48,345 nucleotides of DNA from an uncultured Prochlorococcus sp. (GCA_902624785.1 CACNYU010000006.1:1-48345), one strand, 5' to 3'; numbered from the stretch's first letter, positions 567 through 48,245 are shown. Notes: generated by a model from the letters alone, not told the origin. Made by a program: numbers and translations.

Positions 567-3500
567 CTAGTGGGTCATTATTTGGCAAAGTCTATTTAAT
601 TGTTGAACTTCTTCAACAGAATTAGTCGTACCTACTACCAAATTTGGAGAACCTACAACGATTGAAAGGCATTGAGCTCTACTAATTGCTACATTTAGTC
701 GGTCTGGGTCAAGTATAAATCCAATGCCTCTTGGCGCATTATCAGAATCGCTTGCAGTAAGAGAGTGAATTGAGATAGGTGCTTCCTGTCCTTGAAAACG
801 ATCTACAGTTCCTATTCTGGCTTTACCAGATAATCGATCCTCTAATTTATTTACTTGTAAATTATATGGAGCAGTAATCAAGATTTCATCAGGACCAATA
901 ATGCCTTTAAAAACTGATAATCCTTCATCATTTTTTTGAACTATTTGGTAAGGACAACCCATTAATTTATTTACTAATTCCTCAATTCTGTCTATTTCTT
1001 CTATGCTATCACTGGCATTAGAATAATGCTCTACTTCTTCAAAATACAAGCCTTGTTGTAAGCCTTCCCAAAGAATCTTATTTTCTGATTTAGAAATACA
1101 AGATTTTAGTTCGCCTTCATAAAAAAGCTTAGAAACAACTGATGTCAAAACTGGAGGCATTCTCCAGCTTGTCGCCAAAAAAACACCTCTATCTGCAGAT
1201 ACTACTTTTTCTTCACCCATCAGATAATCTAAGCAACTCAAACTACTATCTCCAGGATGTTTTGCACGATTTGGTTGTGATAACTGATTTTGATCACCAA
1301 CGAGTAAAATATTTCGCGCACAATGGCTCATAAAAAGAAGATTACTCAATGAAACCTGTCCTGCTTCATCAATAACTAAAAGATCATACGGTTTCCCTCC
1401 AAAACGTTCTTTAACTAAACTAAAAACAGTGGCTCCAATAACGTTAGGTTCATTATTAAGGTCACTTTCACGCAGAGTGTGCACTTTTGTTCCACTGAGG
1501 GATAGTTGATCATTTTTTTCACTAGTACCACTACTCAATTTAACTACAAAGGAATTAGTCGAGTAAGATTCTATTTTTCTTTGTACGGATTTAAGCAAAT
1601 TATTAATCGCTTCATGAGTTTGAGAACTTACTATTACTTTCTGATTTTTACCAACTAATTTAGCAATTAGTTCGCCTGTAACAGTGGTTTTGCCTGTTCC
1701 AGGCGGCCCCTGTAATGAAAGAGTGACTCCATCAGTTGCTGATAAAAAATCAGCCATTAATGATGCTGTTTCTACTGGGTCAGCTTTGATCTTTTTATTA
1801 ATCTCTATCAATTCAGGGATGGCCTTTTTTTCTAAAAGATGAACTATTGACTTTGGTAATTTTTTGTTTTTTTCAACCCAACTTTTTGCTTGCCTGACTA
1901 AATCAGGGAGCATACGTTTATATATTTGTTTTGGAAGTGGAATTAAATCACAATATTCTGGTAGTGCACTGATTCCAATATTCTCTAAAGCTTTTTTCTT
2001 GTAAGCACTTACTTTAAGAATTATATTTGCTGAATTATTAGTATCAAACTCGCCTTCCAAATCAAGATTTTTTTTATCATTATTTTTATCTAATTTTTCC
2101 ATAACATTTTTTTGGATGAATTTATCGCCTTTCTTTAATGATTCCGATAAAACAAAATGCATTTTTATTCCTGGTTTTGTAGATAGCTTTAAAGGTTGCT
2201 CTGGTGAAAAAGAATAGATATGACCTTGACTCCTTTTGATAATTTTCTCTCCAATTTTCTCAGCATTAGCAATTACCTCTGTATCCTCGTACCTCTCAGA
2301 AAAAGTCTGGCCCTCTATTCGATCAAAAAATTCCCACCACTCAATTTTGGCTTCCCTTTCATGAAAATCAATCAAGTCAGATAGAAGTTGCTGGTGCTTA
2401 TAACTTAATCCATATGAACCTTCGGCTAATGGATCTTTCAAGGGATTTGGAATCTCTTTCTGCATTGTTTTTGCTAAAACTTCTAAATCTTTTTCAAAAA
2501 TATTTTTAATATCCTCTTCTTTTGATTTTCCCCACTTATTAGGCCGATCAGGAATTTTTAAAGAACTTTTATGCTTAATTAGAAATTCATGAAGTTCCTG
2601 AGTTGACTCACAATCTTTTTTATTATATTCCTCAAGATCTTTGAGTTTCTTACTTTTGGCAATAGATCTTCCTGTTCTTTTAGGCTCATTAGATTTTTGC
2701 CATTCTGCATATTGAATGACCGAGTCAGCTGCCGTATTAATTTCTTCATGGCGTAGATTATCTAAATAGAGCTTTTCTACTTGTTTAATCGAATAACTTT
2801 CCGCTCCTAAAAGTAAACCATTACGAACTATAGGAAAAAGATCAATAAATAATTCTTCCCTTAACCATTGGTCCCAAGTCGTTTTATGAATACCATGAGT
2901 GGTAGCAAGTCTACCTAAGGCAGTCTTCTCGTAGCTGGCATAGTGATACACATGTAGATTAGGATAATCAATACGTCGCTTCTGTACCCATTTTATAAAT
3001 TCATCAAAGGCTAGTTTTTCTTGGCCTAGATCATGAGCCCACCAAGCTTTGAATCTTCTTTCTAATTTTTGGTCTTTTTTTAAAAAATAACAAGCTCCAA
3101 ATAAATACTCTAACTTCTCTCCTGTTACTGGATTTGGGAAACCCTCCATATCAAACCAAATATCTCCTTCATCACATTTGGGCAGCATTGATAATCCTTT
3201 TTCTTGTTCATCTTTACCTTTAATTTCATATGCAGGTCGACCATCAGATTGAGAAGGACGAACCTGTATAGCAGCTTGTTCTTTTAATTTAACAAATATT
3301 TTTTCATCCATCTGGTTTATTATCTGATTTTTTGACGCTTTAGCCAATTCATCAATAGTGGAGATTCCAGAATAAATTAATTTGTTTCTCTGGCTTTGTC
3401 TCATGCCCGCAACAAGAATTAAGTCACGTTTATTCTTAAGTTCTTCGTCTATAAAAGAAGACCAGTGTCCATGATCACCAGGAGAATATTCAGGTTGTTG

Positions 3501-4115
3501 GCTTTCATCAAAATGTTCTATGAATTTTTGATATCTATCACGTAGATTTTTGTACCACATCCAGAAATCATCTAATCGATATCCATTAGGTTCTTTCTCA
3601 AATTTCTTGCCCCCAAGATAAAGCTTAAAATTTTCGGGAAGATATCCAAGAATAGGCTCAAGTAATTCACAATAAGCACAAGCCTGAACTAAATAAATCG
3701 GTTTAGGATGACTTGATAATTTGCATTCAATAGGAATATAACTCCAATCTCCTAATTTAGAAGGCTTATCGATTCGCTGTAGAAGATCGGCAGAACCTCG
3801 CAGGTTATTATTTTGTAAAGAAGCTTGGTGAATGAAATCATATTTTCCATCATGAACTGCATTTAGGGTTTCTTCAAAAGATTCAGCATTCATCTGCCCA
3901 CTAAGCTGCTTGACTTTTTTTCCGTCATTCTTAAGATCTTTTATCAATAGCTGCTCGTGATTATGACCAGATTCAAAAAGTAATTGATCAAGGACATCCT
4001 CCTTAGGCTTGGGAGCTCTCTTAGGATCTATTTTATTTAATTGTTCCCACCATGAACCAATAACAGGACTTCTACTAAATAATGCAAGTTCAGTAGGTGT
4101 AATTTGACGATTCAT
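567..4115 (-). CDS. RecB-like nuclease / RNase H-like / SF1 helicase fusion (TM0106-like)
   Basis: A 1182-residue cytoplasmic nucleic-acid enzyme. The N-terminal PD-(D/E)XK-like part shows D110, E130-C-K132 and a QACAY motif (144-148), the usual RecB-family active-site pattern. A helix-hairpin-like stretch follows near 250, then a DEDD/RNase H-like segment beginning D322-M-E324 and closing with a KKDC motif near 500. The C-terminal third is a UPF1/DNA2-type SF1 helicase: Walker A GPPGTGKT near 800, Walker B VIDEAGQ near 917, GDQNQLSQP, and a C-terminal VDRFQGQE plus LNVAISRA. This order is that of TM0106-type RecB-like nuclease-helicases. Its start overlaps the upstream gene by 4 nt, so the two are probably co-translated. 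Family members act in DNA repair or phage defence; the role here is inferred. Confidence 0.9.
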   Translation of the reverse strand: MNRQITPTELALFSRSPVIGSWWEQLNKIDPKRAPKPKEDVLDQLLFESGHNHEQLLIKDLKNDGKKVKQLSGQMNAESFEETLNAVHDGKYDFIHQASLQNNNLRGSADLLQRIDKPSKLGDWSYIPIECKLSSHPKPIYLVQACAYCELLEPILGYLPENFKLYLGGKKFEKEPNGYRLDDFWMWYKNLRDRYQKFIEHFDESQQPEYSPGDHGHWSSFIDEELKNKRDLILVAGMRQSQRNKLIYSGISTIDELAKASKNQIINQMDEKIFVKLKEQAAIQVRPSQSDGRPAYEIKGKDEQEKGLSMLPKCDEGDIWFDMEGFPNPVTGEKLEYLFGACYFLKKDQKLERRFKAWWAHDLGQEKLAFDEFIKWVQKRRIDYPNLHVYHYASYEKTALGRLATTHGIHKTTWDQWLREELFIDLFPIVRNGLLLGAESYSIKQVEKLYLDNLRHEEINTAADSVIQYAEWQKSNEPKRTGRSIAKSKKLKDLEEYNKKDCESTQELHEFLIKHKSSLKIPDRPNKWGKSKEEDIKNIFEKDLEVLAKTMQKEIPNPLKDPLAEGSYGLSYKHQQLLSDLIDFHEREAKIEWWEFFDRIEGQTFSERYEDTEVIANAEKIGEKIIKRSQGHIYSFSPEQPLKLSTKPGIKMHFVLSESLKKGDKFIQKNVMEKLDKNNDKKNLDLEGEFDTNNSANIILKVSAYKKKALENIGISALPEYCDLIPLPKQIYKRMLPDLVRQAKSWVEKNKKLPKSIVHLLEKKAIPELIEINKKIKADPVETASLMADFLSATDGVTLSLQGPPGTGKTTVTGELIAKLVGKNQKVIVSSQTHEAINNLLKSVQRKIESYSTNSFVVKLSSGTSEKNDQLSLSGTKVHTLRESDLNNEPNVIGATVFSLVKERFGGKPYDLLVIDEAGQVSLSNLLFMSHCARNILLVGDQNQLSQPNRAKHPGDSSLSCLDYLMGEEKVVSADRGVFLATSWRMPPVLTSVVSKLFYEGELKSCISKSENKILWEGLQQGLYFEEVEHYSNASDSIEEIDRIEELVNKLMGCPYQIVQKNDEGLSVFKGIIGPDEILITAPYNLQVNKLEDRLSGKARIGTVDRFQGQEAPISIHSLTASDSDNAPRGIGFILDPDRLNVAISRAQCLSIVVGSPNLVVGTTNSVEEVQQLNRLCQIMTH

Positions 4116-9279: not shown

Positions 9280-9608
9280 TTAAAAACGAATGAATTTATA
9301 TCTAAAATAAATCTTTTAATCATATTTAATTAAAAATTAATAAATTCTTTATTTTAAAATAACTTTAAAAATTTAATAATTTAATCAAGTTGCTCAAGAG
9401 AAGAGTGTAAGGAGTTATCAATAATAATGAAATTAGTAGCCTTTTTATTAAAAAAAGTTTTCTTTTCCCTTCAATAAATTCCGCCTCAATAATCACCCCC
9501 CCTTTCTATTTTTAAGTTTGTTAATCTTTAAAATCATGAAACCAAATCATTTTCTTTACTTAATTTCTCAATTACAAAATCTAATTATTATTTGATTCCT
9601 CAATCTTG

Positions 9609-9869
9609 AAGATTTAAAGCAAAGAATGGAGATAAAAGAAGAATTACCACCATTAAATCATGAAAATAGTGTTGGTCAGGCATTAGGTAGATTCCTTTGA
9701 GAGGAAAAAGTATGGCAACAGTTAAAAAATAGCATTAACAGAACGTCAGCAATCTTTTCCTTATAGTTTTAGACATAGATATTCTTATATCGGTCATAGC
9801 AGACAAAAAGATGATGGAACTTATAGTGCATATAAGCAAATATCAGATTCAATGGTTCACCGACTTTAG
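9609..9869 (+). pseudogene. Tyrosine recombinase C-terminal remnant 1
   Basis: After one frameshift and an in-frame TGA, frame 9735-9869 reads QQSFPYSFRHRYSYIGHSRQ, the conserved Arg-box (FRHR) of phage-type tyrosine recombinases seen in Prochlorococcus tRNA-targeting elements. It then stops before the catalytic Tyr. The upstream part EEKVWQQLKN matches the helix that normally precedes the Arg box. It is a decayed integrase and marks past mobile-element activity. Confidence 0.7.
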
Positions 9870-10311: not shown

Positions 10312-13300
10312 ATGGTAAAGAACAGAGATTGGCTTAAGAAAGTAGGAGAATGGTTGATTAACCAATCTACAGAAGAAAATATAAATCAAGCTTCCTATGA
10401 AATACTTGAGAGATTAAATGAAGAGATAAAACAACTTCATCAAGAAAAAGCACAGAATGTCAATAAAAAAGTTTCAAAAGTCAAAGATAAAGAAGAAACT
10501 ATTCATAATGAAAATTTTAAAAAGTCAATTCTTAATGAATTAAATGTTGAGAGGGCTTATAAAATTTTTCTTTTATCATGGGAAGATGAAGGCTTTTCAT
10601 CAAGATATTTTTTAAATGCTAATGATGCAAAAGTTATGCTGGGAAACCTTGACATACAATTCAGGGAAGAGTTAAAAACTTGGTTGTTTAAAAGTTCAAA
10701 TCAAGTTGAGATTATTCATGATATCGAAAAGATTATTAGACGCAGAAGATCTGATGCATCAGACGACATTAATTCCATAAGGGCCTATTCCTATATAAGT
10801 GTTTTACTAAATAAGAATCAATTTGATTTAAAAAAAGAAAAAGAGGAAGTCAAAAAAGGAGATAAAAAAGAAGAACCATTTGAAATATTCCCTGAGATTA
10901 CAAATAAAGAGAATATTCATCCATTTTTTACTGATAGGGAATTAGAAAAGGAACAACATGGGGATTTTAAAAAGGAAGAATGTATTGATAAAGAAAATCC
11001 CAAGAAATTTATCGAAGATAGAGAAATAATTTTTAATGCAACTATTCAACCTCAATATAAATCAGATCAGCATAACTCAGTTCTTTCTAAAGATATACCT
11101 TTGTCTAATTTGAATTTAAGACTCCCTACTTACAACTTATTAAAGAGGGTCAATAAAGAATATATTAGTGATTTAGCAGGAATGAATGAAAATGATTTTC
11201 TTAGTTTGAGAGGTTTTGGCAAAAATAAATTTGAGGATCTAAAGAATGCTCTGAAAAGAGTTGGTATTCAAATACCATTTGAGTTTAAAAATAATTTAGA
11301 AACAAAAGCAAATAAAAATAGAGCAAAAGAAAAAATAGTACCTCTGAAACTTAATTATGAAGATTTTTTCTGGGAAGAATGTACAAAGAAATTTAGAAAA
11401 GAAAAAATAAATGCTGAAAATATTATTAGGATACTTGATGATTTCACAGATTTCACAATTGAAATTAATATCGAGAATTTTGAAATCTTTAATAATAGCA
11501 ATAATATCCAAACAGTCTTTAATTCATTAATTTCAACTTTTAAAATTGATGCTTTAAAAAATTCAATAGAAGAACAAAAGAAAAATTATATTATATCTGT
11601 ATTTTTTAAAAAGTTTATCTTTCATGAAACTCTTGTTGGAGCAAGAAAGTGGGTATTTAAGCTTCAAAAAAAATTTTTAGAGAACACTAATTACTTCGAA
11701 ATAATCTATAAAAGACTGAATAATGAATCTTTAGCTGAGATTGGTAGAGAGTTTGAACTCTCTAGAGAAAGAATTAGACAAATGGAGGCTAAAGTTTTTA
11801 AAATAATAGGTGTTTCATCAAATGATTTTAGGAAGGGTTATGGTAAATGCTTAGATAAAATTAAGAATACAAAAGAAAGCGAAAAAATCGAAGAATACTT
11901 TTCAAACTATCATCATTTACCTTTCCCAGATGAAGAAAATTCTCTTTTAGAAAATAACGAATTTCTTAAAAATATATCAAAAATTAATCCTTTTGAAAGG
12001 CTGGAAATGTATAGAAAATATAACTTAGAGATACCTAAAACAGAATACGATTATCATTACGATTTGATAAATAAGTCAGGGATAGTTGGCTTTGGATATT
12101 GGAATGAATTTAAAAATCTAAAAGAATTTTTGTATAGACACGCAAATATTCTTGGTCAGCCTGATTTAATGCCAAAGATAACAGATACACCTAAAAGGAT
12201 GGCGCCAGTTATTAAAAAATATGGAGGACAAAGTGGTGTAGCAAAAAAAATAGGTCTTCAATATCAAGGACAACTAGTAAATACTGATGGAGGAAGACTT
12301 TATTGGAACGATGAAAGATTATTTAAATTGCTAAATGATGTGAATAAATTCTCAAAACAAAAAGTTGAAATCATGCCAAGTTATGCACAAATAATTGACT
12401 TTTTTAAAGATTCAGATTCTCAAGAATATGAGGATAAAAAACCAGTTTCTGCAATAGCTGCTCTTACCAAAAGTGGAAATTTTTCATGGTTAGAAGTTGC
12501 TCAAAAGTTTAATAAAAAGCATTATTCGGGAAGCACTCAAAGAGTTACTGTTCAATTTATCAAAGCTTTTGTGAGAGATCTTGGCGAGCATTTAACTGTC
12601 TTAAGCCCAGCCGAATTATACGTAGTTTTTAAGGCTCAAGGCATCAATAAAAAAGAACAGGCGAAATTTAGTCGTACTTTTGATGTCTTAATAGACGCCG
12701 TGCAGACAGGTGTAGTCGATAAAAAAGATTTGGAGGACTGGTCAAATAATCTTGACGTCCCTTCAATAAAAGAATTACTTAATCTTGGGAGTGAAGTCAA
12801 ACTTAAAAATTCCAAGGAAGAGAAAGAAAAAAGGTTACTTAAGGGAAGAGCAAATATTCTCAAAAGAGAATATGAGGACTCCAAATCTATAAGATTGAAC
12901 GAGATTCCAAAAGAAGAACTTCAAAATCCTGATCCAGGGAAAACTCTCAGAGCTTTAGATAAAGCAGCAGGAATTTTGGAGGCTACCGAAAAAGATGTTG
13001 AGAGTATTGAATTTTTAAAAGCGAAAGCATCATCAAAACTTTGGGATAGTTGTTTCGCTGCCGTCCATACAGGTAAGGAAGAAACTTTAATTAGAAATCT
13101 TGAATCTAGTAAATTGGGAATTGACACGTACAGCAAAGAAATCCGTAATAAATTTCTTGAAGAATATCATGGTGCAAAAAACTTACTCATTCCAAAATCC
13201 TATAAATTTAGGGATTTGAAGGGAAAAGAGAGGGAGCCAAAGTTAATGCAAAAGCTTGTTTCTTTTAGATTACTAAGAGATAAAAGAATACTTAACCTCA

Positions 13301-14553
13301 GCGGTACTGGAACGGGTAAAACTCTCTCAGCTATATTGGCAGCTCAAGTTTGTAATTCTCAAAGGATATTTATTTCCTGTCCAAATGGAGTAATCGATAG
13401 TTGGATAAGAACTTTTAGATCAGGTTTCCCAGATGCAATACTTCATATAAAGCCTGAAAATTGGTTAATTAATCTGTTTTCAAAAAAAGTAAATGTAGTA
13501 ATAGTAAATCACGAGAGGTTTCAAGATAGATTCTCAGATAATCTTTTAAAATTTTGTACTGATTTTGCCTCAGATATGATCGTGATCGATGAAATACATC
13601 AATCTAAGCAGAGAAAGTTAAATGAATCGAGTCAAAGAAGAAGATTAATAAATGAATTTATTCGTATTTCAATAAACTCAAATCCTGAAACTCGAGTATT
13701 AGGATTATCTGCAACTCCAGTAATTAATAATATTTATGAAGGAAGATCTTTGGTTGAACTTGTAACTCAGGAAACTCTTTTTGATGTAAAAGAAAATGAT
13801 TTTAATTCATGCATGAACCTTTATCAACACTTCATCTTAAATGGAATAAGAATGAATCCAGGAAACTTGCCTAGGACAGAAATTATACCCCAAAATGTTG
13901 ATGCGACAGCTTTGCTACCTGAGATAATTGCATATACAAGAAATGGTTTATATCACCATGTTGAAAGGCTTTTAGTTAAACCAAAATTGAGCGTTTTAAA
14001 CGAGTGTATTAAGAAAGGCGAACGAATAATAATTTTCATAACACAAATCAAAGGGACTTTAATACCAATTACAAATTGGCTCAATAAAAATCAATTTAGT
14101 TTTTCTGTGTATACGGGAGATCATAAAAAAGCAACTGAAGATGGATTTAAAGATTCTCTCGATGAATTTATTAGAGGAGATACAGAGGTTTTGGTGGCGT
14201 CTGTAAAGTGCGTTGGGACTGGAGTTGATGGGCTTCAATCTGTATGTAGTAAAGCTGTATTTTTTCAATTACCTTGGACCTCTACTGAGTTTGAACAATC
14301 CATAGGAAGATTGGATAGAGATGGGACTGAATTTGAATCTGTAAGAGTTTACCTTCCTTTAACCAATATAAATCTGCCGAATGGTGATAGTTGGAGCTGG
14401 TGTCGAAATAAAATGGATAGGATAAGGAGAAAAAAAGATATTGCAAAAGCGGCAGTTGATGGAGAAATACCTGATGAGGATGAAATTTTCACTCCAGCTG
14501 AAGCGAGTAAATACTGGTTGGAATGGCTCAAAAGATTAGATGGTGAGAATTAA
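10312..14553 (+). CDS. Alpha-CTD-like / sigma region 4-like / SNF2-type helicase fusion
   Basis: A 1413-residue protein. The N-terminus (1-250) is Lys/Glu-rich and helical. Residues about 263-325 (LSNLNLRLPTYNLLKRV ... LSLRGFGKNKFEDLKNAL) match the RNA polymerase alpha C-terminal domain pattern. Residues about 468-500 (LAEIGREFELSRERIRQME) are a sigma-70 region 4-type helix-turn-helix. A middle region of unknown type follows. From about 950 there is an SF2/SNF2 helicase: Walker A SGTGTGKT near 997-1004, CPNGVIDSW, DEIH near 1091, GLSATP near 1131, GTGVDGLQ and QSIGRLDRDG near 1329. ATP-driven translocation on DNA is expected from the family; promoter or polymerase targeting is inferred. It stands alone, after a decayed integrase, with no visible operon partner. 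Confidence 0.85.
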   Translation: MVKNRDWLKKVGEWLINQSTEENINQASYEILERLNEEIKQLHQEKAQNVNKKVSKVKDKEETIHNENFKKSILNELNVERAYKIFLLSWEDEGFSSRYFLNANDAKVMLGNLDIQFREELKTWLFKSSNQVEIIHDIEKIIRRRRSDASDDINSIRAYSYISVLLNKNQFDLKKEKEEVKKGDKKEEPFEIFPEITNKENIHPFFTDRELEKEQHGDFKKEECIDKENPKKFIEDREIIFNATIQPQYKSDQHNSVLSKDIPLSNLNLRLPTYNLLKRVNKEYISDLAGMNENDFLSLRGFGKNKFEDLKNALKRVGIQIPFEFKNNLETKANKNRAKEKIVPLKLNYEDFFWEECTKKFRKEKINAENIIRILDDFTDFTIEINIENFEIFNNSNNIQTVFNSLISTFKIDALKNSIEEQKKNYIISVFFKKFIFHETLVGARKWVFKLQKKFLENTNYFEIIYKRLNNESLAEIGREFELSRERIRQMEAKVFKIIGVSSNDFRKGYGKCLDKIKNTKESEKIEEYFSNYHHLPFPDEENSLLENNEFLKNISKINPFERLEMYRKYNLEIPKTEYDYHYDLINKSGIVGFGYWNEFKNLKEFLYRHANILGQPDLMPKITDTPKRMAPVIKKYGGQSGVAKKIGLQYQGQLVNTDGGRLYWNDERLFKLLNDVNKFSKQKVEIMPSYAQIIDFFKDSDSQEYEDKKPVSAIAALTKSGNFSWLEVAQKFNKKHYSGSTQRVTVQFIKAFVRDLGEHLTVLSPAELYVVFKAQGINKKEQAKFSRTFDVLIDAVQTGVVDKKDLEDWSNNLDVPSIKELLNLGSEVKLKNSKEEKEKRLLKGRANILKREYEDSKSIRLNEIPKEELQNPDPGKTLRALDKAAGILEATEKDVESIEFLKAKASSKLWDSCFAAVHTGKEETLIRNLESSKLGIDTYSKEIRNKFLEEYHGAKNLLIPKSYKFRDLKGKEREPKLMQKLVSFRLLRDKRILNLSGTGTGKTLSAILAAQVCNSQRIFISCPNGVIDSWIRTFRSGFPDAILHIKPENWLINLFSKKVNVVIVNHERFQDRFSDNLLKFCTDFASDMIVIDEIHQSKQRKLNESSQRRRLINEFIRISINSNPETRVLGLSATPVINNIYEGRSLVELVTQETLFDVKENDFNSCMNLYQHFILNGIRMNPGNLPRTEIIPQNVDATALLPEIIAYTRNGLYHHVERLLVKPKLSVLNECIKKGERIIIFITQIKGTLIPITNWLNKNQFSFSVYTGDHKKATEDGFKDSLDEFIRGDTEVLVASVKCVGTGVDGLQSVCSKAVFFQLPWTSTEFEQSIGRLDRDGTEFESVRVYLPLTNINLPNGDSWSWCRNKMDRIRRKKDIAKAAVDGEIPDEDEIFTPAEASKYWLEWLKRLDGEN

Positions 14554-14887
14554 AAAATTATCCTGAGTCCGAACCTAACTAATAAAATATTTTTTTAATT
14601 CCTTGTTAACCCTCAATTAGCATATTGGTCTTATTATTTTCCTTATTGTTCCACAAGCAAATAGTTTATCTTGAAAAATATTACATATTTTTCTCATAGT
14701 TGTGATTAATTATTTATATAGTTCTAGGTTATTTAATTTTTTTTAGGTATCATCAATAATTTTAGAGTAATTAAGGTGATCTTGTATTAATACCGAAAAA
14801 AAGGTCGTATGAAAAAATATTTTCGGTGAGGAGGGTTATTACAAACAAATCACACAAAGAACAAATATCTAATCTTTGAGACTCCAA

Positions 14888-21613: not shown

Positions 21614-22168
21614 ATGGATAAAGGTATAAGAGATAGAAACGATAAAGGCTTTTCCTTAATTGAATTAATAATTGTAATAACAGTTTTATCGATACTTGGC
21701 GCTTTAGCTATTCCTTATTTTGATTCATTAAGAAAAAAAGCAATGATAACAGCAGTAAAAGAAAATATTGAGACAATCGCGAATCAATGTTTAATACAAA
21801 ACATGTTAGATAGGCCAGGCGAATATGGACTTAATTATAGGATGGCTTTTGGATGGAATAATACGAATACCACCTTTAGTAACAATGGAGGAATTGATCT
21901 TGGAAGTATAGGTTATCCTTATTACTTCACTAGTTTGAGTTTTGCAAATCCACTATCTTTGGACTCTAATTGTATAAGTATTACTGCAAGGTCAAGATAT
22001 TTTAATAATACTTCGATAGGGGAATTGCCACACTTTCAAATTTTTTTTAATCCTGGTACGAAGGCATTTGAAAAACTTTGTAAAGTTGATTCTGAAAGAA
22101 CTTTTAATGAGGGAACATGTGATACTCCCCGATGGGTAAACGGAAAATCAAAGAGGAGAATGTGGTGA
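21614..22168 (+). CDS. Type IV pilin-like protein A
   Basis: 184 residues. A short leader ending in Gly is followed by FSLIELIIVITVLSILGA, the class III prepilin signal with Glu at +5, so a PilD-type peptidase should cut after Gly12. The hydrophobic helix would pack in the pilus core. The head contains paired Cys and ELPHFQIFF ... CDTPRW, which align by eye with the head of the 25747 pilin. It starts directly after the hairpin repeat. It is likely a surface or minor pilin; the ligand is unknown. Confidence 0.82.
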   Translation: MDKGIRDRNDKGFSLIELIIVITVLSILGALAIPYFDSLRKKAMITAVKENIETIANQCLIQNMLDRPGEYGLNYRMAFGWNNTNTTFSNNGGIDLGSIGYPYYFTSLSFANPLSLDSNCISITARSRYFNNTSIGELPHFQIFFNPGTKAFEKLCKVDSERTFNEGTCDTPRWVNGKSKRRMW

Positions 22169-22404
22169 ATTTTAAAGTCAAATCACTTCAAAACCCAAAG
22201 AGGTAATCCTTTCTTCTCCACTTCCTTCCTCTTCCAAGCAGGAAGAACTTAATATCATGTGTTGCCATCTTTATCAAATTCTTTACAAAGTGATTTTGCT
22301 TTGATTTCTAAGAAATTAAACTATTTATTCTAAATTTATCAGTCCAGATAAACCATAGGTCAGATAGTGCCTCACAAGTAATTATTATTTAAAACTAAAG
22401 GATA

Positions 22405-22944
22405 CTAAATATTAAAAGATTCCTCTATGAATTCTTTATCAATAATGCAACCATGAGTTCCAAAACCCTCTAGATCATAAGCTAGTTCTCCTAAAGCATA
22501 TCCACAACCATCTTGGAGATCATCGCCTCCATTTTCGTCCATCCACTCTTCAAAAAGTTCTTTATTAAATTCATATCTATCTCCATCTTTATCCATCCAG
22601 TTGCTAATAATTTCTTTTGGACCTTCAAGAATAAAACTTGCTCCAATCCATCTAAAAAGCGGAATTTTTTTTCCTCCTCTGAGTTCTTCGATAAAAGGAT
22701 CATTTAAATATACATCTTCTGTTTCTAGAAACTTGAAACCTCTTTCTTTCAGACTTTCTACGTTATCGATGTGATAATATCCTCCAAAATTCTTAGTAGA
22801 TAAATCTATTGCTTCTTCTTTTTTGCTATTTGAAATCAAATCAATCAACTTATCATAAAAATCTAATTTTGAAATCATATCTATATCTTCATTAACTGGA
22901 TATCCACCTTTGAGGTAACTTTCTAATTTAAGTTTTATATTCAT
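22405..22944 (-). CDS. Acidic hypothetical protein, 179 aa
   Basis: 179 residues, soluble and acidic, with WMDKDGDRYEFN and EEWMDENGGDDLQDGCGYAL that superficially recall Ca-binding loops but lack the EF-hand spacing. No family is recognised. Clean length and codon pattern support a real gene. It is convergent with the pilin gene and followed on the right by a tRNA-Pro fragment. Confidence 0.6.
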   Translation of the reverse strand: MNIKLKLESYLKGGYPVNEDIDMISKLDFYDKLIDLISNSKKEEAIDLSTKNFGGYYHIDNVESLKERGFKFLETEDVYLNDPFIEELRGGKKIPLFRWIGASFILEGPKEIISNWMDKDGDRYEFNKELFEEWMDENGGDDLQDGCGYALGELAYDLEGFGTHGCIIDKEFIEESFNI

Positions 22945-23288
22945 TTTTAATTTATAAAGTTTTTAGTAAGACTATATCATTAATTCTAAAAATTCAGATA
23001 GATTCACTCCTTCAAAAGGATCTTTAAAAGGAGATGTTCAAGTTATAGGCAACCTGCAAAACAAATAAAACGTTAATGGGCGCGCGCAACAAGAGAATAA
23101 TTAAAAAAATTGAAATACTTTTTGGAAGAAGCTTTCAAAAGAGGTTTATTTAGTGATTAACCGTCCACAGTTATACAAGGCTATAGAAGAAAAAATCGTT
23201 ATTTAATCGCTATTTTAGTTATTGAGACTACTGAGAAATAAAAAAGATATTCTGGGTAAATCTCTTTATGAGTTCTTTTTTTATGAGT

Positions 23289-23335
23289 CGGGGCGACAGG
23301 ATTCGAACCTGCGACCTAGTGCTCACAAAACACCA
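23289..23335 (-). repeat. tRNA-Pro(UGG) 3' fragment, copy 3
   Basis: The acceptor end, T arm and variable loop (tcggggcgacaggattcgaa on plus) match the best copy. The anticodon loop carries CTCACAAA instead of CTCCCAAA. The tRNA 5' half is missing. A further conserved segment (cattagcatcactaggtttc) follows, as in copies 5 and 9. Confidence 0.88.
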
Positions 23336-23420
23336 CACGCCCCATTAGCATCACTAGGTTTCTAAGCCATAATTATTTTTAAGCTTGCTCTTACGAAGTT
23401 TGTCATAACAAATTAAGCAA

Positions 23421-23431
23421 TATTTGTCCGC
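23421..23431. repeat. Single 11-bp element, GTC class
   Basis: TATTTGTCCGC lies about 86 bp right of tRNA fragment 3, the same spacing as the paired 11-bp repeats near fragments 4, 5, 8 and 9. Only one unit is recognisable here; the neighbouring one has decayed. Confidence 0.45.
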
Positions 23432-23505
23432 AAAATCTACTAAATTCTTCCTTTATTTAAATTCTAAGAAATAAATAAATTTAAAATTATTAAATATCAA
23501 ATTGC

Positions 23506-24630
23506 TTAATTATTTTCAGAAATTTCTTCAGATAATGAAAGGCTTGTTTTTTTAGCAGTCAATTCTGCAAATTGCTCTCCTTTTTTAATAGTAGTTTTCA
23601 ATTTATTATGAGCTTCATTATAAATAGATACTGTTTGTTTTATTTTTAAACCAATATCATTAAATCTCTTTAAAAAAGCCTCTAAAGCATTATTTAGCTC
23701 ACACGCTTTATTAGATGCTTCTTGAATACCTCTTGTTAAATTTGCTTGTTCAATATTCATAGACAGATTTTGTAAAATTGCAAGAAAACTTGTTGGGAAA
23801 GTGAGAATTATTTTTTTATCAAAAGCATATTCTAGTAATTTTTCATCATGAGCTAATGCCATTGCCAATGCACCTTCAATTGGAATGAACATAATTACAC
23901 CATCTAATACGACTCCTTTATTAGTTTTATTATTTGAATATTTCTTTTTAGAAAGTTCATTAATATGTACTTGTACTTTTTTAACATGATTATCTAAAGC
24001 TAATTTATAAGTCCTCTCATCTTTCGCTTTTAAGGCATCCTGATAACTATCGAGAGGAGCTTTAGAATCAACTATAAACAATCTTTCACCAGGAATTGTT
24101 ATTACACAATCAGGCCTATAAGTCCCATCATTTGTTATTAATGTTACCTGCTCATCAAAATCACAATACCTATTGAGACCTACATATTCCATAGTTCTTC
24201 TAAGTGTCACCTCCCCCCACCTACCTTTTATATTTGGATTGCGTAAAGCATTCGCTAATTCTTTGGCAGCGCTTTCAACATCCTCATTCTTTGTCTTTAA
24301 ATCTCTAGTAGTGGTAGACAAGACCGATAATTTTTCTCTCGATTCATCATTAAGAGTTTTTACTTGTTTGGCTAACTTATCTACTTGTTGATTGAAAGGT
24401 TCAGAAACATTTTCTTTTGTTGCTTTTATTAGTTCTTCCCTTGATTCTTTAAGCATTCTTGAACTTAAGATTTCAAATTGTGTTTTCAAATCATTTTCAA
24501 GTTTTTGTTGAGATTTTAACTTGATAATCAATTCAGTTTCTCTGTTTGTTTTCCAGAAAGATTTAGTCAAAAAGAAACCAGCAAATATTCCCGAAAATAC
24601 TCCAGTTAAAAAAAGTAAAAAACTATTCAT
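23506..24630 (-). CDS. rmuC: RmuC-family DNA recombination protein
   Basis: 374 residues. An N-terminal membrane helix (FLLFLTGVFSGIFAGFFL) is followed by a long coiled coil (about 30-130) and the RmuC core with NIKGRWGEVTLRRTMEYVGL, RPDCVITIPGERLFIVDSKA (the PD-(D/E)XK-like D...DxK residues) and IMFIPIEGALAMAL. Family members limit recombination of inverted repeats in E. coli. That would be relevant in a repeat-rich island, though it may be a core-type gene carried along. It is complete, with the ordinary ATG start. Confidence 0.9.
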   Translation of the reverse strand: MNSFLLFLTGVFSGIFAGFFLTKSFWKTNRETELIIKLKSQQKLENDLKTQFEILSSRMLKESREELIKATKENVSEPFNQQVDKLAKQVKTLNDESREKLSVLSTTTRDLKTKNEDVESAAKELANALRNPNIKGRWGEVTLRRTMEYVGLNRYCDFDEQVTLITNDGTYRPDCVITIPGERLFIVDSKAPLDSYQDALKAKDERTYKLALDNHVKKVQVHINELSKKKYSNNKTNKGVVLDGVIMFIPIEGALAMALAHDEKLLEYAFDKKIILTFPTSFLAILQNLSMNIEQANLTRGIQEASNKACELNNALEAFLKRFNDIGLKIKQTVSIYNEAHNKLKTTIKKGEQFAELTAKKTSLSLSEEISENN

Positions 24631-25037
24631 CCTTTGCTTAAAATTATATTTTTAAATTTTAAATAATCTGATGAAATTTAACCATAATATTATTACCTTT
24701 CTTTTTTCAAAAAAAATCTGATTATCAGCATTAGATAAATTATTAGAGACTTTTTGTTTGAAATTTTAAATCTTCAAGAAATCTGGTTATTAACAGAGAC
24801 TATTTTTTATTATTTCAGTTACTGAATTCCTTACCTTATTAGTTCCAATAATAGGATTATTATTTTTTAGAAATATTTAATATTTGTTTTACAATTTTCT
24901 ATATAGCCGTCTAAATAACCTTTTTTTCTAGTAGTTATATAGAGTTTATCTTCCTTTAGTACCTAATAACTTTTGAGTTTCTTGAAAAATAAACCACATA
25001 GTTAAATAACCCTCCTAATTATTTTTCAAATCGAGTA
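24631..25037. other. Intergenic region without a supported gene
   Basis: About 400 bp of AT-rich DNA between rmuC and the minus-strand pilin gene. No frame, repeat copy or RNA feature is convincing. Confidence 0.4.
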
Positions 25038-25595
25038 TTAGGGATTTTGACCACACATACTTAAGGTATCTCCATTATCGTCATATATTGTTCCAGACCA
25101 TGAAGGACCTTGATAAAAATTATCGCTCTTCCAATGATATATTTGTCCTCCTCTTCTAAGATTTAAACAACCCCAAACTGACCTGTTCATTGATGTTTCC
25201 CCAGTATTATTAAATCTCCAAGCACTCACTCTAAGTTCATCAGGACGCGTATAAAATTCTATTAAATATTGACCTCCAACAATTGGTCTTTGATTACCGC
25301 TACATTGTGAGTTATATAATCTACAACTTTCCAAAACATTGGCATCAATGTAGTTACTGTTTTGAGCAAACTCCTCCCAAGAATTTGGCCATCTTCCTTC
25401 CTCAGAATTAAAAACAAATCCTGATTTTATTGTTGCATCTACATAAGCAATTGCAGCTGCTTGCCTTGCTCTTCTAATAACACCAGTAAAAGCAGGAATA
25501 GCGACTGCGGATAAAATTGAGAGAACCGCAATTACAATTACTAATTCAATCAGAGAAAAGCCATTTTTACTATCATCTTTATTTAATTCAACCAC
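25038..25595 (-). CDS. Type IV pilin-like protein B
   Basis: 185 residues. FSLIELVIVIAVLSILSAVA follows a Gly at the prepilin cleavage site (SKNG). The head differs from the others: QYLIEFYTRPDELRVSAW, Trp-rich and with Cys pairs, ending SMCGQNP. It is divergently arranged with the 25747 pilin (152-bp gap), so the two may share a control region. The helix-coding DNA is close to identical among the pilin genes, while heads vary. It is likely a minor pilin or adhesin-type pilin. Confidence 0.82.
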   Translation of the reverse strand: MVELNKDDSKNGFSLIELVIVIAVLSILSAVAIPAFTGVIRRARQAAAIAYVDATIKSGFVFNSEEGRWPNSWEEFAQNSNYIDANVLESCRLYNSQCSGNQRPIVGGQYLIEFYTRPDELRVSAWRFNNTGETSMNRSVWGCLNLRRGGQIYHWKSDNFYQGPSWSGTIYDDNGDTLSMCGQNP

Positions 25596-25746
25596 TATTA
25601 ATTGAAAGGATCTACTTTATTTTAGTATTCTAAAAAAATATCTACTCAATATTATTTAAAAACCAAATAAATATAAGCTTTAAAAAGTACACCACTATTT
25701 TGCTATAAAAACTGATTACAATTATTGTTAATATAATAGGAAAATT

Positions 25747-26265
25747 TTGAAAAAAGATTTTTCACATAACAGCGGATTCTCTTTAATTGAATTAATAATT
25801 GTTATTGCAGTTCTCTCAATTTTATCTGCAGTAGCCATCCCTTCATTTATCGGCATAAGAAATAGTGCAAAAGTATCTGCAGTTAAAAAATCTCTTGTAA
25901 ACATCCTAAAAGAATGTTTAGTAGCAGAATCAAATTTATCGGGAAATCCAACTTTTAATGATATCGGCGCCTGGGATACAACTAATTCATTTGGGGATAG
26001 CAGAGGATTAAATTTTGGCTTTACTTATGATTCTGACCTTAGTTCTAGCTCTCCAATACAACCTTCTGACTCTTGCTTTAGAATTGCAGCGAAATCAAAT
26101 ACACAGGACATAGGTGGAGTACCTATTCCAGTTCTTCCTCATTTCGAAATATTTTTAGATAGAAGCGATAAATATAAAGTCAAGAAAAATTGTTCCGCTA
26201 GTAATGCAAAGACAATTAATAATAACTTTTGTGATACAAGTGCACCAGAAGGCAGTCAGTGGTGA
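25747..26265 (+). CDS. Type IV pilin-like protein C
   Basis: 172 residues from a TTG start. FSLIELIIVIAVLSILSAVA comes right after a Gly. The head (CFRIAAKS, LPHFEIFLDRSDKYKVKKNC, NNFCDTSAPEGSQW) matches the head of pilin A and also that of the 40906 membrane protein. No ATG lies upstream in frame, so TTG is probably genuine; the 39924 pilin gene also starts with TTG. Confidence 0.82.
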   Translation: MKKDFSHNSGFSLIELIIVIAVLSILSAVAIPSFIGIRNSAKVSAVKKSLVNILKECLVAESNLSGNPTFNDIGAWDTTNSFGDSRGLNFGFTYDSDLSSSSPIQPSDSCFRIAAKSNTQDIGGVPIPVLPHFEIFLDRSDKYKVKKNCSASNAKTINNNFCDTSAPEGSQW

Positions 26266-26314
26266 ATTACCAAAAAATAATTTATAAAGTTGGTCCCAAA
26301 ATTAATCTTGAAAT

Positions 26315-27361
26315 TCAACAAATTGGAACTTCAGCAATACCATAATTATAACCCCAGTAATCATTAGAGTCTTTATTAAAATAATAATCGCGACCAGTAT
26401 TTGGCTCCCTCCACCATGTATTTAACCCACCGTTTCTCTGTGCATGGCCTGATGGATCTTTAATAAGTATATGAAAACCTGATGTTACATTATTATTTTT
26501 GTATTCATCTGGGTAGTTTTCTTGCGAGCCCCCATAAGGCGAACTAAACCCTCTATCCAGAACTTCACCATTGGCAAAACTCAAATTACCAGAGGCATCA
26601 CTTTTGAGTCCTATCCAAGCCCCAGCTCTTTCTCCGTTATTCCAATTAGAGTCTCTTTCAGTTAACTTTTCTGTATATTCATCAATTAAAAATTTGTTTT
26701 CATCAGAGTTATTTGGGGTAGTTAAATTACCTCCTAGCTTTTCTGCATTTTCTTGGGCTTCATCCCATGAAGAGCCTTTTACTAGCGCATATGCTGAACA
26801 ACCTCTTTCTGAATAACTTCCATCCATTACAACCTCAGAATTTTGCTCAATGCTTGCTAATACATTTGCTCTATTAGTTGTGATGAGTTGACTATTTCTT
26901 GAGATATAAGCTTCATTATCATCATCACAAACTAAAGCTAAACACGTTTTAAAATTCTTTCCCTTAATTCCTTTGAAAGAAAAAGTTAATTCTTTATTAG
27001 TCATGGAATATATAAATGTTGGCAACAAATTTGCATTATTAATGTTGGGTTCTAGGGTTATATTTTTATTGCCACATTGAACTTTTCCGCTTGAAGATGA
27101 ATTTAATAATGCTTTATATCCAGAGATATTAACTCGTTGAAAAGAAGAAATATTTGACACGTCAAGAGCACCTGAAATTTCACATTCTTTTTGAATATTT
27201 ATTGCAGATTTTAAAGCAGCAGTTGCTTTAGCCTTTCTTTGAACACAAATAAAAGATGGAATCGCAATCGCACCTAATATTGAAAGTACTGAAATTACGA
27301 CAACCAACTCTATTAAAGAAAATCCAGAATTAGAGGAAGTTAATTTGTTGTCTAATTTCAT
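26315..27361 (-). CDS. Pilin with a C-type-lectin-like C-terminal domain
   Basis: 348 residues from the ATG at 27361; an upstream in-frame ATG at 27388 is less likely because it would lengthen the leader. FSLIELVVVISVLSILGAIA is the prepilin helix. A pilin-like head with Cys pairs spans about 50-165. The C-terminal 160 residues look like a C-type lectin fold: SSWDEAQENAEKLGGNLTTP, AGAWIGLKSD (the WIGL core), NTWWREPNTG and YGIAEVPIC at the end. Such a head would present a ligand-binding or phage-contact surface on a pilus. It is convergent with pilin C. Confidence 0.8.
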   Translation of the reverse strand: MKLDNKLTSSNSGFSLIELVVVISVLSILGAIAIPSFICVQRKAKATAALKSAINIQKECEISGALDVSNISSFQRVNISGYKALLNSSSSGKVQCGNKNITLEPNINNANLLPTFIYSMTNKELTFSFKGIKGKNFKTCLALVCDDDNEAYISRNSQLITTNRANVLASIEQNSEVVMDGSYSERGCSAYALVKGSSWDEAQENAEKLGGNLTTPNNSDENKFLIDEYTEKLTERDSNWNNGERAGAWIGLKSDASGNLSFANGEVLDRGFSSPYGGSQENYPDEYKNNNVTSGFHILIKDPSGHAQRNGGLNTWWREPNTGRDYYFNKDSNDYWGYNYGIAEVPIC

Positions 27362-27526
27362 TAAATTTAGTGAAACTAAAATAAGCATAATTCAAAGAAT
27401 ATTTTTGGTTAGAAAATTTAAAGTTATTTTAAAAATATCTTTAGAGCATACTCTCACTCAAGTTAGGCGTGAAGCAATTATTTGCGAGGATTAGGTATTA
27501 GCTGAGACTTATCGCTATAACAGATC

Positions 27527-32583: not shown

Positions 32584-33861
<1,278 letters not shown>

Positions 33862-39317: not shown

Positions 39318-39809
39318 CACACTTATTACAAATTAGGTTATTTAACTAAAGCTGTTTCTGATCCTAATTGTCCCGATAGGGAACCTTATTTATATACTCA
39401 AAAATCGTGTAATGACAAGCCTACACCTCCTTCTTTAAATGAGATAAAAAGGATATTAAGTCTTGTAGGAGTTAGACGAGAAAATAAGGCGAGAATTTGG
39501 AATAACAAGCTTGAAAATATTTATGGCATTCCCAATCTTGCTAGTGATGCTTTAAGAACAAAATTAATTAGAAATAAATTATGGAAAAAATTTAGAAATC
39601 AAGCAGAAAAACAAAAAGAAGAACTAGTGCCTTATGCGTTCCGTCATAGGTTTGCAAAAGTAGCTCATGCAAGACAAGTTGAATTAAATTTAAATGATAA
39701 GGATATAGCTCAAGTAATGGGTCATACAAAAGAGGTACATGCTGCAAATTATGCAAGATTTATACCAGACGATACTTACGATAAATTTGAAAAACAGTTG
39801 GTGGCTTAA
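39318..39809 (+). pseudogene. Tyrosine recombinase C-terminal remnant 2
   Basis: In the same frame as the upstream secreted protein, after its TAG. From about 39435 the residues are integrase-like: LIRNKLWKKFRNQAEKQKEE, PYAFRHRFAKVAHARQVELN (Arg box), DIAQVMGHTKEVHAANYARF (His box and nucleophile Tyr). The domain is complete at its C-terminal end (stop at 39809), but the N-terminal half is missing. A separate start may exist at 39627. It is inactive as a whole integrase. Confidence 0.75.
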
Positions 39810-39923: not shown

Positions 39924-40439
39924 TTGAAAAAATCATTCTTCAATTCAAATGAGAAAGGATTTTCTTTAATTGAATTAATTATTGTTATTGGTGTCTTAAC
40001 AATTCTTGGAGTTATAGGATTACCTTTTTTCAAAACAGTAATTAATTCTGCACTATTACAAGTATCTAAAATATCTTTAATTGATTGCTATAAAAATTGC
40101 TTAAATAATCCTGATGAGCCTTTGAGATTGGCAAATATTCCTAAAGTTTCTTATACGTCTTCAAATTGCTCAGGAGAAGTAAAAGCAAATATAAATGAAG
40201 AATGTGAAATCTCAATGAATATGAATAATGGGTTAAAAATAAAATGGCCAGCAACTTATCAGAATTGTATTGATTTTAGAAATAACAATAATCCAGATGA
40301 AGATGAACCTCCAATACCTGTATGTACCGCAGTTCAACCAGGGATTTGTGGACTTCCCCCATGTGGCGACCCTATGTGGGATTGTAGACGAGAGTGTCCA
40401 GAGCAATGGGCTAAGTGCTTATCTGAGAGAGGGGGTTAA
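39924..40439 (+). CDS. Type IV pilin-like protein D
   Basis: 171 residues, TTG start. FSLIELIIVIGVLTILGVIG follows a Gly. The head (SYTSSNCSGEVKANINEECE, then NQNCIDF-like Cys) is the same kind as that of the 47409 pilin. The C-terminus adds a Cys/Pro-rich tail with CGLPPCGDPMWDCRRECP-like spacing, possibly disulfide-bonded. It is flanked by the 39822/40504 direct repeats. Confidence 0.8.
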   Translation: MKKSFFNSNEKGFSLIELIIVIGVLTILGVIGLPFFKTVINSALLQVSKISLIDCYKNCLNNPDEPLRLANIPKVSYTSSNCSGEVKANINEECEISMNMNNGLKIKWPATYQNCIDFRNNNNPDEDEPPIPVCTAVQPGICGLPPCGDPMWDCRRECPEQWAKCLSERGG

Positions 40440-47408: not shown

Positions 47409-48245
47409 TTAATTACAATCAGCTACTTTATGACCTGCAGTTCTCCAGTACCCTTGAGGGCCTAATCTCCTTACACTTATATTCCCTTGAGGATTTAACC
47501 ATACGTCAAACTGATAGTCACTTTGCGAAGAATTATCCAAGGCATTATTTATTTCGTCTTTTAAATCAGTATTATCATCAAAAAATTCTCCAAAAATGGC
47601 CTCTCCAGAATTTCTTATCTGAAAATTATGATACTTATTACTTGAACTTTGACTATTAGGTAATGAATTAGTTTTTTCTAAGTTGCTCGAATCAGATAAC
47701 CACTTTTGAAGAACACCATATGCATTAGTAAAGTTTTTATCACCTTTTGACATATATTCTGGAAGGATGTCCGATGCATTATTATTACAAGAGGTTCCAG
47801 ACCAAATGACCACCTGATCTCCAGAGTTATTATTACTATCTCCAGTTTCATTACTAGTTTCGCCTGATTCATTATTTAAAGCAGTATTACTTGATGAAGT
47901 ACATTCGTCATAAGAATTATCCCATCCAGTTTTTGCCCCAGTAGACATATCCATTGAAATAGTGCATGAATTATCAATAGTGGCAGTCATTAGACTTGAA
48001 CAATTACTTGATTGAAATGCAACACCAGGAATGTAGGGATTAGAGGGAGAAATATTAGGGTCATTAATACAGCTAGTAAAACTATCTCTAATGTGATTTT
48101 TGGCTGATTCAAATCGAGCCAAATTAATAAGTCTTAAAAAATAAGGTCCGCTTAGTATTGAGAGAATTGCAAGAACAGCAATTACAATAACCAGTTCGAT
48201 TAGTGAAAATCCTTCACTCTTAAAACTTTTAAAAGAATCTCTCAA
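47409..48245 (-). CDS. Type IV pilin-like protein E, long head
   Basis: 278 residues. FSLIELVIVIAVLAILSILS follows a Gly at the prepilin site. The proximal head (GVAFQSSNCSSLMTATIDNS and CTISMDMSTGAKTGW) matches pilin D. An Asn/Ser/Gly-rich linker follows (about 118-145), then a distinct C-terminal domain of about 130 residues ending in KVADCN. The linker plus extra domain suggests an exposed adhesin-like tip. It is bounded left and right by GTC-class 11-bp repeats. Confidence 0.82.
   Translation of the reverse strand: MRDSFKSFKSEGFSLIELVIVIAVLAILSILSGPYFLRLINLARFESAKNHIRDSFTSCINDPNISPSNPYIPGVAFQSSNCSSLMTATIDNSCTISMDMSTGAKTGWDNSYDECTSSSNTALNNESGETSNETGDSNNNSGDQVVIWSGTSCNNNASDILPEYMSKGDKNFTNAYGVLQKWLSDSSNLEKTNSLPNSQSSSNKYHNFQIRNSGEAIFGEFFDDNTDLKDEINNALDNSSQSDYQFDVWLNPQGNISVRRLGPQGYWRTAGHKVADCN

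What the first reader, a model, noticed from the sequence alone, without database searches (positions are those of the whole stretch)
10312..14553. RNA polymerase alpha-CTD-like and sigma region 4-like modules on an SNF2-type helicase
Two promoter- or polymerase-recognition modules are joined to an ATP-driven DNA translocase in one 1413-residue protein beside a decayed integrase. This suggests a machine that finds promoters or stalled polymerase and remodels or clears DNA. It could be a defence factor acting on phage transcription, or a transcription-coupled factor.
Basis: partly seen in the sequence, partly recalled or inferred. Interest (0 to 1): 0.82.

Follow-up and report, generated by a model that had tools for sequence, protein, structure and literature searches.

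The report
Defence-type DNA motor with promoter-reading head
A Prochlorococcus protein joins two DNA-reading domains borrowed from the transcription machinery (RNA polymerase alpha-CTD and sigma-factor region 4) to a DNA-pumping motor; its relatives sit inside anti-phage defence operons, so it is probably a defence enzyme with a swappable recognition head rather than a transcription factor.

Summary
The intact 1413-aa ORF carries a true RNA polymerase alpha-CTD (residues ~258-320), a true primary-sigma region 4.2 helix-turn-helix (~450-500) and a Swi2/Snf2 ATPase core (~965-1390), confirmed by profiles and, for alpha-CTD and motor, by fold. The host is Prochlorococcus. The motor core belongs to a family found in bacteria, archaea and virus-derived contigs, whose N-terminus is usually an array of DNA-binding repeats (DUF4379, INT_rpt) and whose C-terminus usually carries a methyltransferase that the picocyanobacterial clade lacks. 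Sigma-4-type modules, with or without alpha-CTD, were put on this motor at least twice. The same alpha-CTD/sigma-4/repeat module (36% identical) occurs without the motor, next to MzaC- and MzaD-like genes. Three close relatives lie inside class-1 DISARM operons, upstream of drmA, with DrmD present separately; another lies beside Vsr, a C5 methyltransferase and the PDC-M33 set. The recognition part diverges about five times faster than the motor. Best reading: an anti-mobile-element dsDNA translocase with an exchangeable promoter-type recognition head. Promoter or polymerase targeting is plausible but untested: the sigma helix keeps every -35-reading residue, while this copy's alpha-CTD has lost classic DNA contacts. 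New variant of a known kind.

The parts
10312..14553 (+). alpha-CTD / sigma-4 / repeat / SNF2 translocase gene, 1413 aa
10519..10821 (+). N-terminal helical domain (residues ~70-170), also in relative L022 and in the motor-less Cyanobiaceae module proteins; function unknown
   Evidence: by sequence inspection
11083..11271 (+). RNA polymerase alpha-CTD domain (residues ~258-320)
11659..11811 (+). sigma-70 region 4-like helix-turn-helix (residues ~450-500)
11761..11793 (+). recognition helix SRERIRQMEAK (residues 484-494); matches sigma70 TRERIRQIEAK, all -35-contact residues kept
12082..12531 (+). conserved repeat-like region (residues ~591-740; GGQS.VA..GL..QGQL and MPS..QI motifs) that ends the recognition module where the motor-less copies stop
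12532..13191 (+). helical middle domain (residues ~741-960)
13192..14481 (+). Swi2/Snf2 two-lobed ATPase core (residues ~961-1390)
13303..13323 (+). Walker A GTGTGKT (residues 998-1004)
   Evidence: G, K and T of the loop invariant in 35 family members
13588..13599 (+). Walker B DEIH (residues 1093-1096)
   Evidence: D and E invariant in 35 family members
9602..9806 (+). weak tyrosine-recombinase remnant upstream (PYSFRHRYSYIGH)
14587..14742 (-). remnant of the small secreted-protein gene that lies convergent and downstream of the helicase gene in four other Prochlorococcus loci (L013, L014, L015, L024)

Best explanation
A defence-type (anti-phage / anti-mobile-DNA) double-stranded-DNA translocase. 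The N-terminal half (residues ~70-740: helical domain, alpha-CTD, sigma-4 helix-turn-helix, repeat region) is an exchangeable recognition head that docks on double-stranded DNA, most simply on -35-like, AT-rich promoter-type sequence. Docking would load or license the C-terminal Snf2 motor, which translocates along and remodels the DNA, either blocking its use directly or delivering it to partner enzymes: DISARM in Cyanobium, GIY-YIG or Vsr nucleases or M33 proteins in some Prochlorococcus, none visible next to the window's copy. Shown: domains, intact motor motifs, module exchange, fast divergence of the head, defence neighbours of relatives. Inferred: DNA docking, loading, translocation, defence outcome. 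No nuclease domain was found in the protein, so it is unlikely to cut DNA itself.
For: Domains and folds. Close relatives lie inside DISARM operons: L137 next to drmA (1081 bits against cut-off 950), drmB (561 against 240) and drmC (PADLOC 6.6e-43); L027/L145 with drmD (1022 bits) and drmMI (1215 bits) upstream and the same drmABC downstream; truncated L026 likewise upstream of drmABC. Relative L135/L156 is next to GIY-YIG, Vsr (6.7e-30), PDC-M33A/B/C (1.3e-65, 1.9e-26, 5.8e-27) and a C5 methyltransferase. L136 is next to a type I methyltransferase. The head alone (L131, 36% identical over the module) precedes MzaC-like (294 bits), MzaD-like (81 bits) and GHKL M33A-like genes. Sigma-4 or alpha-CTD modules appear in two or three separate clades of the motor tree. 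Head dN 0.24-0.43 against motor dN 0.07 between the window copy and L013. Patchy presence: 17 of 400 Cyanobiaceae genomes have any part.
Against: The window's own copy has no recognised defence system beside it; its flanks are a RecB-like/helicase gene 6 kb away, an M48 peptidase and surface-sugar genes. The three DISARM cases share 76-97% identical drm genes, so they count as one locus type. Most DISARM loci in this family of cyanobacteria lack it (34 of 400 genomes have a full-scoring drmA). No activity was tested. For the wider motor family the defence enrichment of neighbours is only suggestive (57 PADLOC families hit by 140 neighbours against 13 by 124 control ORFs, control from cyanobacteria only).
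Confidence: 0.62

Rival explanations
1. Promoter- or RNA-polymerase-targeting defence factor: the head mimics the alpha-CTD/sigma-4 pair of holoenzyme, seats on -35/UP DNA of invading genomes or on polymerase there, and the Snf2 motor then strips or blocks the transcription complex.
For: Sigma-4 keeps all -35 contacts (SRERIRQMEAK); the nearest solved sequences are primary sigma factors, including sigma-4 from 3n97, a complex with alpha-CTD on UP/-35 DNA; alpha-CTD DNA contacts are fully kept in relatives L022 and L027; the pair was assembled on this motor in two phyla.
Against: This copy's alpha-CTD has R265P, K298N, S299K; two relatives (L023, L024) have degenerate alpha-CTDs and several have degenerate sigma-4 helices; how self promoters would be spared is unexplained; such domains serve as generic DNA binders elsewhere.
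Confidence: 0.27
2. Host transcription or repair factor: a RapA- or Mfd-like Snf2 protein that recycles or removes stalled host RNA polymerase.
For: Snf2 motor plus polymerase-type domains; a weak RapA-model match in the C-terminal lobe (E 6.6e-5).
Against: Patchy, in 17 of 400 Cyanobiaceae genomes; relatives found in defence operons and in loci with integrase, prim-pol or phage-like genes; head diverges fast; no long match to RapA.
Confidence: 0.08
3. Nucleic-acid modification machine: most relatives join the same motor to a Methyltransf_8 (Rrp8-like) methyltransferase, so the family's ancestral job may be modifying DNA or RNA, and the Prochlorococcus protein is a derived motor-only form.
For: Methyltransferase domain in most family members outside the picocyanobacterial clade.
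Against: Absent from the picocyanobacterial clade and from its flanks; it does not explain the defence neighbourhoods.
Confidence: 0.15

Closest known systems
DISARM (class 1: drmD, drmMI, drmA, drmB, drmC)
   Same: Relatives are encoded inside the operon; both use Snf2-type motors
   Different: DrmD is present as a separate gene; the match to DrmD models is only the C-terminal helicase lobe (34 bits against cut-off 610); the Prochlorococcus copies seen are outside DISARM
MZA system and its sigma-like MzaA
   Same: The alpha-CTD/sigma-4/repeat module occurs as a separate protein at the head of an MzaC/MzaD-like operon
   Different: Sequence match to the MzaA model is only 26 residues of helix-turn-helix; no Z1, MutL or AIPR part in the window
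DpdE / BrxHI / DrmD Snf2-like defence helicases
   Same: Snf2/SF2 motors in DNA-modification-linked defence; weak matches to the C-terminal lobe
   Different: No full-length match; different N-terminal half
PglW (type 2 BREX), BrxL, DndH variant
   Same: Defence proteins carrying an alpha-CTD-like domain or a sigma-like helix-turn-helix (PMC12839542, PMC10853773)
   Different: Kinase, Lon-like or HerA/FtsK partners; not both modules on one Snf2 motor
RapA
   Same: Bacterial Snf2 protein linked to RNA polymerase (own knowledge)
   Different: No alpha-CTD or sigma-4; widespread housekeeping protein where present rather than patchy cargo (own knowledge)

Membership tests
Swi2/Snf2 superfamily 2 translocase | Two-lobed Snf2 ATPase fold | tested here: met
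   INO80 Z 21.1 over 376 residues
Swi2/Snf2 superfamily 2 translocase | Intact Walker A/B and motif VI | tested here: met
   GTGTGKT, DEIH, EQSIGRLDRDG; key residues invariant or nearly so in 35 members
Swi2/Snf2 superfamily 2 translocase | dsDNA-stimulated ATPase / translocation | not testable with these tools
   needs biochemistry
RNA polymerase alpha-CTD domain | alpha-CTD profile and fold | tested here: met
RNA polymerase alpha-CTD domain | 265 determinant for DNA (R265, N268, G296, K298, S299) | tested here: not met
   only N268 and G296 kept in this copy; kept in full in L022 and in the first copy of L027
Sigma-70 region 4 | Profile match | tested here: met
   (profile of six relatives); the single-sequence Pfam match is just below cut-off
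Sigma-70 region 4 | -35-reading residues R584, E585, R588, Q589 | tested here: met
Sigma-70 region 4 | Region 4 fold | tested here: inconclusive
   helices predicted with confidence, but the fold searches were filled by alpha-CTD matches
Sigma factor (complete) | Region 2 (-10 and core binding) | tested here: not met
   no region 2 or 3 match in the protein
DISARM DrmD | DrmD equivalog score | tested here: not met
   33.8 bits against 610; DrmD is a separate gene in L145
DISARM accessory gene | Encoded within a complete DISARM operon | tested here: met
   for the Cyanobium relatives; the window copy is not, and its genome (55% complete) shows no drmA
MZA MzaA | MzaA equivalog score | tested here: not met
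   21 bits against 800
MZA-like system, head module only (L131) | Neighbouring MzaC and MzaD homologues | tested here: met
   family-level matches, below equivalog cut-offs
Defence function | Protection against phage or plasmids | not testable with these tools
   needs a challenge assay

The most novel reading that the evidence does not exclude
A promoter-licensed defence motor: a free-standing copy of the holoenzyme's UP/-35-reading pair (alpha-CTD plus sigma-4) used as an exchangeable targeting head that seats on promoters, or on polymerase at promoters, of invading DNA and fires a Snf2 translocase, with the same head also serving Z1/GHKL (MZA-like) systems and working alongside DISARM.
Probability: 0.27. 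Interest if true: 0.85.

Novelty: new variant of a known kind. Interest (0 to 1): 0.6.

Why it matters
It shows transcription-initiation domains reused as an interchangeable recognition cassette across at least two kinds of defence machinery (DISARM-associated Snf2 motor, MZA-like Z1/GHKL operon), and assembled on the same motor in separate phyla. It offers a concrete, testable answer to what triggers or targets such motors: promoter-type DNA. It also adds an apparently undescribed accessory gene to class-1 DISARM operons in picocyanobacteria, a group with intense phage pressure.

Tried and rejected
DrmD identity: rejected, because a separate DrmD sits in the same operon. Complete sigma factor: no region 2 or 3. 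Search of viral contigs with the window protein alone: no relative; the family alignment found 14 viral-contig loci, none with this head type (L101 has a sigma-4-like helix-turn-helix). Plasmids: only the motor core matched; phages: only short helicase stretches. A class-wide search with the head alignment mainly returned genuine RpoA genes, a positive control for the alpha-CTD but useless for finding further head-bearing proteins. A nearby separate methyltransferase: none. Wider-family neighbourhoods showed no repeated partner gene. The sigma-4 region did not appear in the fold searches, which were filled by alpha-CTD matches, so it rests on sequence and predicted helices. Paper searches for MZA/MzaA and DUF4379 helicases gave nothing on this protein; the HARE-HTH paper is not held. 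Integrase remnant against solved structures: no match.

Full report
OBSERVATION. The ORF at 10312-14553 (+) encodes 1413 residues. Pfam finds RNA_pol_A_CTD at 260-315 (E 1.3e-7), Sigma70_r4 at 465-496 (E 9.2e-5, just under the family cut-off) and DEAD/Helicase_C. The alpha-CTD is stronger in relatives: 6e-16 in Prochlorococcus L022 and two copies at 2e-26 in Cyanobium L027. An AlphaFold model of residues 60-745 (pLDDT 70, seven sequences) gives listed matches that are all RNA polymerase alpha-CTD, Z up to 11.7 and 1.1 A over 61 residues to the Synechococcus alpha-CTD. A profile of the sigma-4 region of six relatives hits only sigma region 4 among the 60 best PDB sequences, best E 6.3e-10. The motor model (pLDDT 77, 35 sequences) is Swi2/Snf2.

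HOST AND FAMILY. The window's genome is Prochlorococcus (same-genus relatives). Using the core alignment, 92 stretches in one-per-species bacterial and archaeal genomes encode relatives of the motor (80 kept), plus 14 in viral contigs. Most have an N-terminal array of DUF4379 treble clefs or INT_rpt repeats and a C-terminal Methyltransf_8 domain. The picocyanobacterial clade lacks the methyltransferase and has the alpha-CTD/sigma-4 head instead. In a tree of the motor, this clade (support 100), the planctomycete pair L031/L038 (99; sigma-4, weak alpha-CTD, one DUF4379, methyltransferase) and a filamentous-cyanobacterial clade (100; sigma-4-like helix-turn-helix, DUF4379, methyltransferase) are separate, so sigma-4-type heads were put on this motor more than once. 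The tree is a quick one with some long branches, including the one leading to the picocyanobacterial clade, so its exact sister group is uncertain.

THE HEAD IS A MODULE. The part up to residue ~736 exists without the motor: in Prochlorococcus G485 (L131, 36% identical over the module, two alpha-CTDs) and as ~645-695-aa proteins in several Cyanobiaceae. In G485 it is the first gene of a run with MzaC-like Z1 (294 bits), MzaD-like PD-(D/E)XK (81 bits), a GHKL ATPase resembling PDC-M33A and a PDC-M33C-like gene. Between the window protein and its closest relative L013, dN of the motor and middle domain is 0.07-0.09 while the head's is 0.24-0.43 (dS is near or past saturation, so these are rough), the pattern expected of a recognition part.

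DEFENCE CONTEXT. In Cyanobium CZS25K the gene order is drmD, drmMI, a DUF262-like gene, an Hsp70-like gene, the relative, drmA, drmB, drmC (supported on L137; the DUF262 and Hsp70 labels are by inspection). L137 and the truncated L026 have the same drmABC block downstream. Other Cyanobiaceae DISARM loci have different genes or small ORFs between drmMI and drmA, so this looks like an accessory slot. In Prochlorococcus G336 the relative is beside GIY-YIG, Vsr, a full PDC-M33A/B/C set, a C5 methyltransferase and a second M33-like set. In G204 it is beside a type I methyltransferase. L014/L023 and L024 lie near integrase, prim-pol or apparent phage-type genes and a GIY-YIG gene. The window copy stands alone; its genome, only 55% complete, shows no drmA. 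In the wider family, nearest neighbours hit 57 PADLOC families (140 proteins) against 13 for 124 control ORFs from cyanobacteria: suggestive only, because the control does not match the phyla.

RESIDUES. The recognition helix SRERIRQMEAK matches sigma70 TRERIRQIEAK in every -35-contact position; the four key residues are invariant in the six aligned heads from two phyla. The alpha-CTD's DNA-contact residues are complete in L022 and in the first alpha-CTD of L027, but this copy has P265, N298 and K299, and L023/L024 are degenerate. Which residues of sigma70 and alpha-CTD touch DNA, and the E. coli reference sequences used, are from established knowledge. So -35-like binding by the sigma-4 part is the better-supported half of the promoter idea.

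MECHANISM. Best reading: an anti-mobile-element dsDNA translocase with an exchangeable recognition head. Shown: domains, intact motor motifs, module exchange, fast head divergence, defence neighbours of relatives. Inferred: DNA docking by the head, licensing of the motor, and the defence outcome. Promoter or polymerase targeting is the main rival or extension (0.27). Host transcription repair is unlikely (0.08).

KNOWN RELATIVES. Defence proteins with an alpha-CTD-like domain (PglW) or a sigma-like helix-turn-helix (BrxL, a DndH variant) are described (PMC12839542, PMC10853773). I found no description of both modules on one Snf2 motor, or of this accessory gene in DISARM, in the library available, which is not the whole literature.

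Noticed in passing
window 32584-33861 (+): 425-aa protein with an apparent signal peptide, then a ubiquitin domain close to the eukaryotic one (residues 20-93, E ~1e-37 to single ubiquitins), then a region with 57-86% relatives in other Prochlorococcus whose matches do not include the ubiquitin part. Either a captured eukaryotic ubiquitin on a secreted barrel-like protein or an assembly chimera.
   Followed up: partly
window 39417-39806 (+): Second, better preserved tyrosine-recombinase C-terminal remnant (E 1e-5), 30 kb from the one beside the helicase gene; the two may bound an old island.
   Followed up: partly
window 21614-27388, 39924-40439, 47412-48245: Six ORFs with the GFSLIELIIVI-type prepilin N-terminus, which looks like many for one 48-kb stretch.
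   Followed up: no
window 567-4115 (-): 1182-aa TM0106-family RecB-like nuclease fused to an IGHMBP2-type helicase, with MkoA-like PADLOC matches; possibly a second defence gene.
   Followed up: no
L124 (Prochlorococcus G521), 934-3915 (+): The same genus also holds a methyltransferase-bearing member of the motor family, on a long branch, without alpha-CTD or sigma-4.
   Followed up: partly
L123, L125, L126, L130: Motor-less head proteins in Cyanobiaceae lie divergent from a recurring gene with an HGDF / LVISAWDG-type start; role unknown.
   Followed up: no
L101-L114: The motor family, mostly with the methyltransferase, occurs in contigs classed as viral, some over 300 kb.
   Followed up: no
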